Under the pieces are notes generated by a model. The model was given only the letters and a program-made list of their open reading frames with translations. It ran no database searches and had not been told where the DNA came from. A DNA stretch of 64,000 nucleotides from Thermosynechococcaceae cyanobacterium Okahandja (GTDB taxonomy: Bacteria > Cyanobacteriota > Cyanobacteriia > Thermosynechococcales > Thermosynechococcaceae): contig CP136945.1 of NCBI GenBank assembly GCA_041530395.1, positions 868,001 through 932,000 of the forward strand, written 5' to 3'. This document shows positions 32,140 through 37,962 of the stretch, one piece after another. Both the position numbers and the translations under genes were made by a program. The first letter of the stretch is position 1; every line of letters begins with the position of its first letter.

Positions 32140-34425
32140 CTAGTCTAAGTAGGTTGGCAGGGGCGATCGCCATGCGCTGGCGAACTCCTCCATCGTACCC
32201 TTGATAAGTGTGGAATTGTCACAGGTGTCAATACACAATTCTGTATTCTCGCCATTCACGACCCCCAAGTACGTCCAGTAGGCTGGCAAGTGCTGGCGCA
32301 AATAGGCTTCCCACTGCCCCTGATCCGCTGGCCGCACAGACACCAGAATCCGCGCCCCCCCCTCACCAAAAAGAACCGCATCCCAGCGGGGATAATTCCC
32401 TTGGGGCAGTTGAATCGTGGCACCCCGCTGACCACTGAGGCAACACTCCACCAGTGCCACCGCCAAGCCCCCTTCACTCAGATCGTGGGCACTGGCTACC
32501 CAGCCGTGGTGAATGCCGTACCGACACGCCGCCTGCACCTGCTGCTCAAGATCCAGATCAATCTGGGGTGGGCGGCCCGCTACACAGCCATGGATTTGGG
32601 CTAAATATTCCGTGCCGCCGAGGGTGACCCGCGGATCGCTGAGGGGGGTACTCAGGGGTAAGCCCAGCAGGTAAATCCTATCGCCCCCTTTTTGCCAGCC
32701 TTGACCCACAACCCGCGTCAGGTCTGGTATCAAGCCCACCATGCCCACCACGGGAGTGGGATAAATTGGCTGCGGTTGGCCGGCACTGTCAATGGTTTCG
32801 TTGTAGAGGGACACATTGCCGCCCGTGACGGGGGTTTGCAAGTGGCGACAGGCTTCGGCAAGGCCACGGCAGGCTTCCGCCAACTGCCAGTAACCCACGG
32901 GGGTTTCAGGGCTGCCAAAATTCAGGTTATCGGTCACCGCAAGGGGTTCTGCGCCCACACAACTCAGGTTGCGGGCGGCTTCGGCAACGGCAGCTTTGCC
33001 CCCTTCGTAGGGATCCAAATAGACGTAGCGACTGGGGCAGTCCACGGTGGCGGCAATGCCCTTGCGAGTGCCCCGCAGGCGAATGACGGCGGCATCGGCA
33101 TCCCCCGGAAACACAAGGGTATTGTTTTGTACTTCATGGTCGTACTGGCGATAGACCCACGCTTTGCTAGCAATACTGGGCGTGCTCAGCAGCGTCAGCA
33201 ACACTTCCGACCAAGACTGACCGGGCAAGGGTAACTGCTCAGGCGACCATTGCCGTGCCTGCTGGACGTAGGCTGGCGGCTCTGTCAGGCACTCGCGCTC
33301 GTAGAGGGGGGTATCTTCGGCTAGGGCGCGGGCGGGCACTTCTGCGGCCACCTCCCCGCGATAGAGAACCCGCACGACCGGCTCGGCAATCACTTGCCCC
33401 ACCACCACGCCCTGAAGACCCCAACGGTGGAAAATAGCCAGCAACTCGTCTTCGCGCCCCTTAGCGGCCACAAAGAGCATCCGTTCCTGTGATTCTGAGA
33501 GCAAAAACTCGTAGGGCACCATGCCCGGCTCGCGTACCGGTACCTTGTCAAGGTCAAGCTCAATGCCCACCCCACCTTTAGCGGCCATCTCGGCGGTGGA
33601 ACAGGTCAACCCCGCTGCCCCCATATCCTGAGCGGCCACGACCGCGCCCGTTTGAAAGGCTTCGAGGCAGGCTTCAATCAGGCACTTTTCTAGGAAGGGA
33701 TCACCCACTTGGACGGCGGGGCGATCGCCCATCGACGCATCCGTTAGCTCAGCGCTGGCAAAACTTGCGCCCCCCATGCCATCCCGCCCCGTCGTCGAAC
33801 CGACGTAGAGCACCGGATTACCCACACCACTGGCACCCGATTTCACAATTTCGGGGGTTTCCATCAGCCCTAGGGCCATGGCATTCACCAGTGGGTTCCC
33901 CCCATAGCTGGGGTCAAAATAGACCTCGCCGCCGACGGTGGGCACCCCCACACAATTGCCGTAGTGGGCAATGCCGGCCACCACCCCCTTCACCAGTTGC
34001 TGGGTTTTTGGCTCCTTCAGGTCGCCAAAGCGCAGGGCATTGAGCAAGGCAATGGGTCGCGCCCCCATCGTAAAAATATCCCGCAAAATTCCGCCAACCC
34101 CGGTCGCCGCCCCTTGAAACGGTTCAATGGCTGAAGGATGGTTGTGGGACTCAATCTTAAACGCCAAGCGCAGGCCATCCCCCAGATCCACCACGCCAGC
34201 ATTCTCGCCGGGACCGACCAGTACCCGCGCCCCTTGGGTGGGAAACTGCTTCAGCAGGGGGCGGGAGTTTTTGTAGCAGCAGTGCTCTGACCACATCACG
34301 CCAAACATACCCAATTCGGCACGGTTGGGATGGCGGCCTAAGCGGCGTACTATCTCGCTGTACTCGTGGGGCTTTAGTCCTTCCGCGGCAATCTCAGTAT
34401 CCGTAACAAGGGGGGAGTGGCTCAT
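32140..34425 (-). CDS. purL: Phosphoribosylformylglycinamidine synthase subunit PurL
   Basis: PurL is the large subunit of the PurL-PurS-PurQ enzyme that turns formylglycinamide ribotide into the amidine. The 761 residues are the small (PurSQ-dependent) form. [10 protein letters not shown] near residue 45 and [12 protein letters not shown] are typical. purS and purQ are not in the window. It leads the purL-purF run and is divergent from the small gene before the Argonaute, with a shared 212-base gap. Confidence 0.96.
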
Positions 34426-34637: not shown

Positions 34638-34850
34638 ATGACCCCCTCTCTACTCCGGCAGTTTTGGTCGTTTGTCGAGCAGACTCAGGTGGGGATTTTG
34701 CTCAGCCTCGATGATGGTGCCTTGCAGGGGTGGCTTTTGAGCCATTTTAGCGATACCTATCCCCTTGAACAGAGTCAGCGGTCTCATCTGGAAACCTACA
34801 TTGCCTCGCGATTGATGCTGATCCGCGAAGTGGTGAGCGATCGCCACTGA
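34638..34850 (+). CDS. Small conserved-looking hypothetical protein upstream of the Argonaute gene
   Basis: The 70-residue product (start M-T-P-S-L-L-R-Q-F-W) looks helical, with a hydrophobic centre (V-G-I-L-L-S-L-D-D-G) and L-S-H-F; it has no membrane segment. I do not recognise a family with certainty, although similar short proteins probably occur in other cyanobacteria. The ATG at 34638 has AAAGGAG at ideal spacing; a GTG two codons earlier is less likely. It ends 58 bases before the Argonaute start on the same strand, so the two may share a transcript. Whether it is a functional partner cannot be told from one genome. Confidence 0.6.
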   Translation: MTPSLLRQFWSFVEQTQVGILLSLDDGALQGWLLSHFSDTYPLEQSQRSHLETYIASRLMLIREVVSDRH

Positions 34851-34908: not shown

Positions 34909-37107
34909 GTGACGGCGACTTCTCATCCGGTCTTTTTGAACCAGTTCCTTGTCAAAACCCTTGCACCAGAAGAGGCACGAACTGTTCAGCGCTATGCCTG
35001 CCGCTGGCAGCGCAACCCTGATGAGGGAACAGCAGACTACGCCCTCAATCGGGTGTGCTACCAGTTAAGGGTGCCTGCCGCCCGTTGGCGCACCCATATT
35101 GTGACGTTCCAGCCCCCCGAGTGCTTGGAATCGGAGGAGTGGCAGCTTACCGAACTTGAGCCTGTGGTGTTAGATTGCGGTGATCCTGAGCAGCGGGAGG
35201 CTCTAGCGACCCTCCACCGTCAGAGACTACGGCAATCTCTTCAGCAGGATCAGAGTAACTACGAAGTGGAAAGAGGCAGCGACAATAGCATCCGTATTTG
35301 GCAAAAACAGCCCAAAAAGTCCGAGAACACCCCAGAGGGCTGGGAGGCCCGCAAGGGCTATTGCCTTGATCTGAGAATTGATACGGCTGCCCACCTCTAC
35401 CTCGATATTGATTGTGCCTACCGCCTCTGGACACCCTGGACCTTGCATGACTGGTTAGAGCACTACCCAGACAGCTTGCCCTTGATTAAGTGGGTGCGCA
35501 ATACCTACCTAAAAAATAATCAGTATCGGTGCTGGCAGTTGCTCCACCTTAGCCAAGAGCGGCCTGAAGACGTTCGCTTGCCGGGATTGAACATTACCCT
35601 TGCGGAGTACCACCGTAACGAAAGGGCAACAGACGCAGAAATTGAGCGCTCGCGGGTGGTGTACGTCAAAGATGCCCGCATTCAGCAAGGTGGGCGCATT
35701 CCCCATCTTTCGCAGCGGTTAACCCCCAGCGTGACCCTAGAACTGCTCTCAGAACTGGGAAAGCAGCCCCAACTGCGGGCAAAGGTGGACGCAGTGTTTA
35801 AGAGCCTTCGTATTAACACAAATACTCGCTTTCAAGACGCGCAAAGATTTGCCAGATGGCTAAGCGCAAAGTACTATGGCGGCACTGATCGCGATCTCCC
35901 TCCCCTTACAAAGACGGGCTATCAACTCCCCCCTGCGGTGCTATTGGCCAAAACTAAACAGGTCAAGCAGGTGGCTCAGGTGCGCCAAGCGGGCTGCGTG
36001 GCCGTCGGTGAAACAAAATTTGGTTTGCTAAACTTAGCCAGCCCAGAGCGTGCCTATCCGCCAGAAATTTATGAATGCTTGGAGGATATTGGCCGCTGTA
36101 ATCAAGTGACACTCGATCTAGACTCCTATCGGACGGCGGCTGATTTGGGCAATACCGATCTGGCTCGGCAGCGATTCTGGCGGGAATGGGCTGAGGAGGG
36201 GGTGCGCACCATCCTAGTGGTGATGCTCTACTCTAGCGATAAACAGCGCATTCGCAATGAGGCGTTGCGGGCGGGTATTACCACCCAGTTTGTGGTTCCC
36301 CAGAACATTGATGCCTACAAGGCGATAAATGTGGTGCTCGGTCTGCTGTGTAAGGCAAAATGGCAGCCGGTGCATCTACAGCTCAGTGACACTGCCGAGG
36401 CCGCCGAACTGATTATTGGCTTTGACACCGGCACGAACCGCGACCTCTACTTTGGTACCCCTGCCTTTGCGGTGCTAGCGAATGGTCAGTCCCTCGGCTG
36501 GGAACTGCCAACGGTGCAGCGGGGCGAGAAGCTGAGCGGTCAGACGGTGTGGCAAACGGTTCTCAAGCTGATGGATAAGTTCTATACCCTCTGCAAGCGC
36601 TACCCCCGCAAGGTGTTGTTGATGCGGGATGGCCTTGCCCGTCTGGATGAGTTTGAGCGCACAATTCAAGAGCTTGAACAGGAGAACATCGCGGTTGATC
36701 TGCTCAGCGTGCGCAAGAGTGGGGCGGGACGCATGGCCTACAGCAGAGAGCCTAGGAACAGAGCGCCGGATTCCAACCAACAGCCAAATTATCGCTCGGT
36801 ACCAAAGGGGACGGTAGTTTACGATGAGCAGGAGCGATCTTTTTTGCTGGTGACGAGTCAGGCAATTCGTCAAGAGTTGGGCAGTCCGCGACCGCTGCGT
36901 GTTGTCCACAGTTATGGCACCACGTCGCTACAAATGCTGGCGTTGCAAACCTACCACTTAGCCCAGTTGCATCCCGGGAGTGGGTTTAGCCATGCCCGCC
37001 TACCGTGGGTACTGCACCTTGCCCACAAAAGTAGCCAAGAGTTTTCCCGCATTCAGCCGTTGAGTGTGCTGGAGGGGCTAGACCGCGACAAGTTGATTGC
37101 TGTTTAG
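34909..37107 (+). CDS. Prokaryotic Argonaute (long form, catalytic set intact)
   Basis: A 732-residue protein with the layout of a long pAgo: N-terminal and linker regions, a PAZ-like region (about 180-300), MID (about 385-495) and PIWI (about 500-732). The MID pocket for the guide 5' end is recognisable: Y441-x3-K445, Q460 in T-T-Q-F-V, and K484 in C-K-A-K-W-Q-P-V. The PIWI catalytic residues are all present: D506 (G-F-D-T-G), E540 (Q-R-G-E), D574 (M-R-D-G) and H706 (L-H-L-A-H-K). This gives a DEDH set like that of the Pyrococcus enzyme. Family knowledge predicts a guide-directed nuclease, possibly active against invading DNA or in replication. It starts at GTG 34909 without a strong ribosome-binding site. 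No partner nuclease, helicase or Sir2/TIR gene is adjacent; recO follows by 54 bases. Confidence 0.93.
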   Translation: MTATSHPVFLNQFLVKTLAPEEARTVQRYACRWQRNPDEGTADYALNRVCYQLRVPAARWRTHIVTFQPPECLESEEWQLTELEPVVLDCGDPEQREALATLHRQRLRQSLQQDQSNYEVERGSDNSIRIWQKQPKKSENTPEGWEARKGYCLDLRIDTAAHLYLDIDCAYRLWTPWTLHDWLEHYPDSLPLIKWVRNTYLKNNQYRCWQLLHLSQERPEDVRLPGLNITLAEYHRNERATDAEIERSRVVYVKDARIQQGGRIPHLSQRLTPSVTLELLSELGKQPQLRAKVDAVFKSLRINTNTRFQDAQRFARWLSAKYYGGTDRDLPPLTKTGYQLPPAVLLAKTKQVKQVAQVRQAGCVAVGETKFGLLNLASPERAYPPEIYECLEDIGRCNQVTLDLDSYRTAADLGNTDLARQRFWREWAEEGVRTILVVMLYSSDKQRIRNEALRAGITTQFVVPQNIDAYKAINVVLGLLCKAKWQPVHLQLSDTAEAAELIIGFDTGTNRDLYFGTPAFAVLANGQSLGWELPTVQRGEKLSGQTVWQTVLKLMDKFYTLCKRYPRKVLLMRDGLARLDEFERTIQELEQENIAVDLLSVRKSGAGRMAYSREPRNRAPDSNQQPNYRSVPKGTVVYDEQERSFLLVTSQAIRQELGSPRPLRVVHSYGTTSLQMLALQTYHLAQLHPGSGFSHARLPWVLHLAHKSSQEFSRIQPLSVLEGLDRDKLIAV

Positions 37108-37161
37108 GGAACCTGCCGCGATAGGCTAAAGAAAGACACTTGTTCTGCCGTTTTTTTGGCA

Positions 37162-37962
37162 ATGAGCCGCACCTACACCACTGTCGGCATTAACCTCAAA
37201 GCGATGCCCTTGGGGGAAACCGATCGCCTTCTGAGTGTGCTGAGTCGCGATCGCGGCCTGCTGAAATTGGTAGCCCCCCACTGCCGTGGCTCCCGTTCCA
37301 AGCTGGGGGGACGGGTTGATTTATTCGTTGTCAATCAGTTGTTTATTAGCAAGGGGCGCAGTTTAGACCGCATCCTTCAGGCGGAAACCGTCATGACCTA
37401 CCATGGCCTGACGGCTCAACTGGCTCGGATTACGGCGGCTCAGTACCTTGGTGAAGTGGTGCTTTACCAGTCCAACCATCCCCAGCCGCAACCGGAACTC
37501 TTTGACCTGCTGTGCGCCACCCTAGACCATTTGCAGCAGGTGGCCAGTCGGGATGCCCTTGCAGTATTGTTGCGCAGTCTTTACCAGCTTCTGGAGCTGG
37601 GTGGGATTGCCCCCCAATGGCACCACTGTAGTGATGGCGGCGGCGAGCTACAGGTTCCCAGTGCCGATAGCGATTGGCGGCTGGGCTTTAGCTTTGCGGC
37701 AGGGGGGCTGTTGGCAACTGGCAGGGGCGATCGCCTCCTCACCGCCCATGAAGTCCGGTTAGGCCAGTGGTTGGCCGCACCCCCAACCCACGCCCTAGGG
37801 CTGAGAGAGTTTTTAGAGGCCTCTCGCGCCTATCCCCTGAGTGTTTGGCTCTCCTTAGAGCGGGTAGTGCGGCAGTACGTGCAGTTTCATTTGGATAAAG
37901 TCCTGCGGGTGCCACCGCTCCTTGATGCCTGTTTTTCGCCACTAACGGTACCACAGCCATGA
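37162..37962 (+). CDS. recO: DNA repair protein RecO
   Basis: RecO works with RecR to load RecA on single-stranded DNA coated with SSB. The 266 residues show the N-terminal OB fold (V-G-I-N-L-K-A-M-P-L-G-E-T-D-R-L-L-S), the R-G-S-R-S-K-L-G-G motif and the helical C-terminal part with L-Y-Q-L-L-E-L-G-G-I-A-P. The zinc-finger cysteines of some RecO proteins are mostly missing here (W-H-H-C only). ATG 37162 is preferred over TTG 37156. The stop overlaps the start of the transporter gene (ATGA). Confidence 0.92.
   Translation: MSRTYTTVGINLKAMPLGETDRLLSVLSRDRGLLKLVAPHCRGSRSKLGGRVDLFVVNQLFISKGRSLDRILQAETVMTYHGLTAQLARITAAQYLGEVVLYQSNHPQPQPELFDLLCATLDHLQQVASRDALAVLLRSLYQLLELGGIAPQWHHCSDGGGELQVPSADSDWRLGFSFAAGGLLATGRGDRLLTAHEVRLGQWLAAPPTHALGLREFLEASRAYPLSVWLSLERVVRQYVQFHLDKVLRVPPLLDACFSPLTVPQP

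What the first reader, a model, noticed from the sequence alone, without database searches (positions are those of the whole stretch)
34909..37107. Intact long prokaryotic Argonaute with a DEDH catalytic set in a probable thermophilic cyanobacterium
Seen: D506, E540, D574 and H706 fit the four catalytic positions, and Y441, K445, Q460 and K484 fit the guide 5'-phosphate pocket. Known: cyanobacterial long pAgos such as that of Synechococcus elongatus are DNA-guided nucleases, and thermophilic pAgos are active at high temperature. Inferred: this protein should be an active, heat-stable guide-directed nuclease. No canonical partner gene is adjacent. I cannot tell whether this exact protein has been studied.
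Basis: partly seen in the sequence, partly recalled or inferred. Interest (0 to 1): 0.8.

Follow-up and report, generated by a model that had tools for sequence, protein, structure and literature searches.

The report
TtAgo-like Argonaute with DEDH site
A heat-loving cyanobacterium carries an intact DNA-guided nuclease (Argonaute) of the Thermus type whose active site has swapped one acid for a histidine, and close relatives of this gene travel between hot-spring cyanobacteria as integron gene cassettes, which I found described in no paper I could search.

Summary
The 732-aa ORF (34909-37107, +) is real and intact: a long-A prokaryotic Argonaute of a Thermosynechococcus species. Its nearest solved relative is T. 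thermophilus TtAgo (full length, E=2e-63), and a predicted model agrees. D506/E540/D574/H706 sit on TtAgo D478/E512/D546/D660, so the DEDH tetrad is confirmed. DEDH occurs only in four Thermosynechococcus proteins that form one clade (support 100/100), with a shortened MID loop. All other close cyanobacterial relatives that can be read there are DEDD. The gene sits between purL and recO with no partner gene. Activity and heat stability are inferred, not shown. Thermosynechococcus DEDX pAgos were already reported in 2023, so this is a new member of a known kind. The main surprise lies in the DEDD sister copies: in three genomes from different lineages ago is an exact single-gene integron cassette (attC after the stop codon, 10-nt R'' box complementary to the cassette's own 5' boundary). 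Another four genomes have an attC match just after the ago stop. One pair from different families is 98% identical in DNA.

The parts
34909..37107 (+). ago CDS, 732 aa, GTG start, TAG stop: long-A (TtAgo-like) Argonaute
35449..35727 (+). PAZ domain (residues 181-273, Pfam PAZ_3)
   Evidence: E=5.3e-25
36241..36243 (+). K445, first residue of MID 5'-phosphate pocket (= TtAgo R418); invariant
36253..36255 (+). R449, second pocket residue (= TtAgo K422); invariant within the close family
36286..36288 (+). Q460, third pocket residue (= TtAgo Q433)
36352..36354 (+). K482, fourth pocket residue (= TtAgo K457)
36424..36426 (+). D506, catalytic (= TtAgo D478)
36526..36528 (+). E540, catalytic glutamate finger (= TtAgo E512)
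36628..36630 (+). D574, catalytic (= TtAgo D546)
37024..37026 (+). H706, fourth catalytic position (= TtAgo D660); H only in the four-member DEDH clade
37156..37962 (+). recO, directly downstream; ago-recO order shared with genome G019
32140..34425 (-). purL, divergent upstream neighbour; in G019 it keeps a scrap of the ago 5' end

Best explanation
A complete, single-copy, chromosomal long-A Argonaute. It most likely loads short 5'-phosphorylated DNA guides in its MID pocket (K445/R449/Q460/K482 plus a metal and the C-terminal carboxylate, as in TtAgo) and holds the guide 3' end in PAZ. It would then cut complementary DNA with a two-metal RNase H-type site made of D506, E540, D574 and H706. 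In the cell it would act on multicopy or invading DNA such as plasmids and transforming DNA, and perhaps at replication termini, as reported for SeAgo and TtAgo. It belongs to a Thermosynechococcus-only subclade in which the fourth catalytic acid became histidine and the MID loop before the pocket lost two residues. Shown here: the intact gene, domain content, tetrad and pocket register, the clade and the synteny. Inferred: guide and target type, catalysis, heat stability and the role in the cell.
For: Full-length match to TtAgo. TtAgo complexes are the top structural hits of the predicted model (pLDDT 83; Foldseek E about 1e-57). PAZ domain. Tetrad and pocket columns invariant apart from the fourth catalytic position. 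DEDH clade monophyletic at 100/100. Purifying selection between the two recO-linked copies: dN 0.25, dS about 2.1, near saturation; the gene evolves faster than purL or recO. DEDX with X = D, H or K is accepted as catalytic (PMC6299218). Related cyanobacterial SeAgo reduces transformation and RSF1010 plasmid maintenance (PMC10653904), and SeAgo is a TtAgo relative that uses DNA guides (PMC10269773).
Against: No biochemical data for any DEDH member of this clade. The KR pocket reverses TtAgo's RK order and guide preference could differ. The GTG start has no clear ribosome site, so expression is unproven.
Confidence: 0.85

Rival explanations
1. The D-to-H switch and the shortened MID loop mark a functional change: an enzyme with altered guide 5'-end or target preference (for example RNA targets, or a different guide first base) rather than a plain TtAgo-like DNA-guided DNA nuclease.
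For: Both changes are fixed together in one clade and the D-to-H change occurs in no other close relative; the loop change (W-S-P-N/H to Y-S) lies just before the pocket residue K445 and could touch the first guide base.
Against: The rest of the tetrad and pocket is conserved; D and H both occur at this position among Argonautes held to be catalytic (PMC6299218). One DEDD-side relative (L047, cut short) also has the short loop.
Confidence: 0.2
2. The protein is a guide-binding but non-cutting Argonaute because the H706 substitution within a DEDD background impairs catalysis.
For: All other close family members that can be read there use D at this position.
Against: H is an accepted fourth residue in active Argonautes (PMC6299218); the clade keeps the other three residues in four diverged species and dN/dS is well under 1.
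Confidence: 0.08
3. The gene is a transient mobile insert without a stable cellular role.
For: Sister DEDD copies are carried as integron cassettes and have moved between families.
Against: The window copy has no attC or repeats nearby; ago-recO linkage is shared with G019 and the purL side keeps an ago scrap there, so it has been resident since before the two species split.
Confidence: 0.07

Closest known systems
TtAgo (Thermus thermophilus Argonaute; PDB 3DLB, 3DLH, 4NCB)
   Same: Same domain order over the full length, three of four catalytic residues, Q and second K of the pocket, thermophilic host; best sequence and fold match
   Different: About 30% identical; D660 is H706 here; pocket R418/K422 is K445/R449; chromosomal between purL and recO, whereas the Thermus copies found lie on plasmids (which searched plasmids only)
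SeAgo (Synechococcus elongatus Argonaute)
   Same: Cyanobacterial long-A pAgo of the TtAgo branch (PMC10653904, PMC10269773); PAZ_3 also rings in the S. elongatus control genome
   Different: Sequence not held here, so identity, tetrad and pocket were not compared; mesophilic host
DEDD-clade pAgos of Thermosynechococcus and other cyanobacteria
   Same: 44-50% identical full-length relatives with the same KR pocket
   Different: Fourth catalytic residue D, MID loop two residues longer; sit beside carboxysome genes in six Thermosynechococcus species or inside integron cassettes

Membership tests
Long-A prokaryotic Argonaute | N, PAZ, MID and PIWI domains all present | tested here: met
   Full-length TtAgo alignment and fold, PAZ_3 hit
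Long-A prokaryotic Argonaute | DEDX catalytic tetrad (X = D, H, K) | tested here: met
   D506/E540/D574/H706 on TtAgo D478/E512/D546/D660
Long-A prokaryotic Argonaute | MID 5'-phosphate pocket in a recognised form (YK, RK, HK, KR...) | tested here: met
   K445/R449/Q460/K482; KR is listed among long-A variants in PMC6299218
Long-A prokaryotic Argonaute | Guide-dependent endonuclease activity | not testable with these tools
   Needs purified protein
TtAgo/SeAgo branch | Clusters with TtAgo and cyanobacterial active pAgos | tested here: met
   Tree: window with cyanobacterial KR pAgos, TtAgo next to them, far pAgos outside; SeAgo itself not included and TtAgo is on a long branch
TtAgo/SeAgo branch | DEDD tetrad as in TtAgo (a TtAgo feature, not a requirement of the branch, for which DEDX is given in PMC10653904) | tested here: not met
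   H706 at the fourth position; DEDH confined to four Thermosynechococcus proteins
Integron gene cassette (considered for the window copy) | attC directly after the stop codon, paired with a 5' boundary | tested here: not met
   No attC model hit in the window, no flanking repeats, no R'' box in the 48 bases to recO
Integron gene cassette (DEDD sister copies L018, L055, L052) | attC after the stop codon, R'' box complementary to the cassette's own 5' boundary, L'/L'' hairpin | tested here: met
   TAGAGATAAC versus GTTATCTCTA exact over 10 nt in all three; L''/L' pairs with compensatory changes; attC scores 86-105 bits
Integron gene cassette (DEDD sister copies L018, L055, L052) | Excision and integration by an IntI integrase | not testable with these tools
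   Of the seven genomes tested, a full-length intI is found only in UBA999; broken or partial in G000, G113, G409, G204; none in G019 or G023

The most novel reading that the evidence does not exclude
The TtAgo-like Argonaute of hot-spring cyanobacteria is a defence gene spread between unrelated lineages as single-gene integron cassettes. The window's copy is a settled chromosomal branch of the same family that changed its catalytic tetrad from DEDD to DEDH and shortened its guide-reading loop. The cassette state of the sister copies is shown by sequence; that the window's branch itself once was a cassette is not shown.
Probability: 0.6. Interest if true: 0.65.

Novelty: new member of a known kind. 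Interest (0 to 1): 0.42.

Why it matters
It gives a natural pair (DEDD and DEDH Argonautes of one family, both present in genome G019) for testing what the fourth catalytic residue does, in an enzyme from a moderately thermophilic host. The sister copies add integrons to the ways that Argonaute defence moves between bacteria. This would help explain the patchy, cross-family spread of active pAgos in cyanobacteria that PMC10653904 put down to horizontal transfer.

Tried and rejected
Pfam Piwi search of the genome found nothing; this is a blind spot of that model, since PADLOC, the PDB search and the fold search all recognise the protein. Sequence-only search for related loci with the single protein failed; the alignment query worked. 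A viral-contig scan found no relative. A plasmid scan found Thermus and haloarchaeal pAgos but no close relative. A partner gene was sought among the neighbours and none found; a Cas4-like gene (2.618 Mb) and partial RecB-type hits (1.84 Mb) lie elsewhere in the genome. The 70-aa upstream ORF (34638-34850) was considered as a partner and rejected: in G019 it stays with purL while the intact ago lies elsewhere, and it has no Pfam match. That the window copy is itself an integron cassette was tested and rejected. SeAgo and PfAgo could not be aligned because their sequences were not in reach.

Full report
The gene. The ORF at 34909-37107 (+) is open for 732 codons with a GTG start. It matches T. 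thermophilus Argonaute over residues 7-730 (E=2.2e-63) and other pAgos (CpAgo, CbAgo, KmAgo) only in the MID-PIWI half. PADLOC calls it pAgo at 847 bits; Pfam sees only the PAZ domain. A predicted model (19-sequence alignment, mean pLDDT 83, pTM 0.81) has TtAgo complexes as its top structural matches (E about 1e-57, TM 0.6-0.7). The modest TM-score over the whole chain probably reflects domain movement.

Active site. D506, E540, D574 and H706 align with TtAgo D478, E512, D546 and D660.

Guide pocket. TtAgo R418, K422, Q433, K457 align with K445, R449, Q460, K482. All four of the latter are invariant across the 14-member alignment, whereas Y441 is W or M in other members and K484 is often G. 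In the predicted model K445 begins helix 445-454 with R449 one turn later, and K482 ends helix 469-482. The spacing R449-Q460 (11) equals TtAgo K422-Q433. 'KR' is a listed variant of long-A MID pockets (PMC6299218), so this is a corrected register and not a new pocket.

Family and the DEDH switch. All 11 genomes of the genus examined hold at least one relative; record titles identify the genus as Thermosynechococcus. About 33 cyanobacterial relatives were aligned. All close ones that can be read at that position are DEDD except four from Thermosynechococcus (window, G019 copy a, M46_R2017_013 and a partial from an uncultured bin), which are DEDH. These four also lack two residues in the loop before K445 and carry Y where most others have W. 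They form one clade with 100/100 support. Genome G019 has both kinds. Between window and G019a the protein is 66% identical (dN 0.25, dS near saturation), against 92% for PurL and 84% for RecO: a fast-evolving but constrained gene, as usual for defence genes.

Neighbourhood. The window order is purL (-), ago (+), recO (+). G019 keeps ago-recO, but a rearrangement has moved purL elsewhere. Beside that purL lies a 161-bp, 97% identical copy of the ago 5' end. So the purL-ago-recO order predates the split of the two species. In the other genomes neither recO nor purL has this neighbour. Six other species keep a DEDD ago next to the carboxysome genes ccmK-ccmK-ccmL-ccmM. No partner gene is adjacent in the window. 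A Cas4-like gene and partial RecB-type hits exist elsewhere in the genome.

Integron cassettes in the sister lineage. The DEDD ago of G019 (L018) lies between roughly 85-bp repeats that have the layout of integron attC sites. Seventeen sites align; the L''/L' arm shows compensatory changes (AU to GC in 4, CG to UA in 3 sequences), and one site folds far better than shuffles (z -4.2) while three others do not stand out. A model built from them finds sites directly after the ago stop codon in G019, G113 (another family), Gloeomargaritales VI4D9, UBA999, M98_K2018_005 and Oscillatoriaceae M7585, and weakly in Chlorogloea CCALA 695. Several of these sites were among those the model was built from, so their scores are not independent; the Chlorogloea site was not. 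The cassette hallmark, which does not depend on the model, holds exactly in three genomes: the R'' box of the ago attC (TAGAGATAAC) is the reverse complement of the sequence at the end of the preceding attC (GTTATCTCTA). The same 5' boundary is seen in UBA999 and M98 copy 1, without an obvious attC before it, as would follow from insertion outside an array. The G019 and G113 ago genes are 98.0% identical in DNA although the hosts belong to different families, which shows recent transfer. The VI4D9 copy is interrupted by an IS5-type element. A full-length integrase was found only in UBA999; the window's own genome has a broken intI and attC sites elsewhere. No held paper was found to join Argonaute to an integron cassette (judged from titles and abstracts); subscription papers are not held, so this is not proof of novelty.

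The window copy is not a cassette. No attC, repeat or box lies near it. Whether its branch ever was one cannot be said.

Function. By membership the protein should be a 5'-phosphate, DNA-guided DNA endonuclease acting in defence against plasmids and transforming DNA, as reported for SeAgo (PMC10653904), with a possible role at replication termini, as for TtAgo and SeAgo (PMC10269773). None of this was tested here. Heat stability is inferred only from the host genus.

Novelty. Predicted active pAgos of Thermosynechococcus in the TtAgo branch are already on record (PMC10653904). The DEDH subclade is a modest addition. The cassette state of its sisters is the more surprising result.

Noticed in passing
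L018:7240-9702, L055:1323-3782, L052:3970-7675; also L039, L032/L033, L054, L035: DEDD-clade ago genes are integron gene cassettes: attC 10-26 bp after the stop codon, with an exact complementary 5' boundary in three genomes; the G019 and G113 copies are 98% identical in DNA although the hosts are of different families.
   Followed up: yes
own genome G000:C1:1355057-1355858 and C1:1737274-1742182 (outside the window): Broken integron integrase gene (stop codon and gap) and a cluster of attC sites with a second intI scrap nearby: a decayed chromosomal integron in the window's genome.
   Followed up: partly
L019, L020, L021, L025, L026, L028: In six Thermosynechococcus species the DEDD ago sits directly upstream of the carboxysome genes ccmK-ccmK-ccmL-ccmM at a conserved locus.
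   Followed up: partly
L031:6560-6720 (G019:C1 near 499600): A 161-bp, 97% identical copy of the ago 5' end lies beside purL in G019, a scar of a rearrangement that separated purL from ago-recO.
   Followed up: yes
L032/L033 (Thermosynechococcus sp. M98_K2018_005): Two ago copies 13.7 kb apart are identical over all 2145 bases, one with a full attC and one with a truncated attC.
   Followed up: partly
L052:4752-5993: The ago cassette of Gloeomargaritales VI4D9 is interrupted by a 1.24-kb element with an IS5-type transposase ORF (named by eye from its sequence).
   Followed up: partly
window 34638-34850 (+): 70-codon ORF with a good ribosome site between purL and ago, conserved next to purL in G019, no Pfam match; probably a real small gene unrelated to ago.
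   Followed up: partly
L018:336-11587: The same G019 region holds an Eco57I/TaqI-type restriction-methylase protein, a NYN/LOTUS-domain protein and an MgtC-type protein around the ago cassette: it looks like a small defence island.
   Followed up: no
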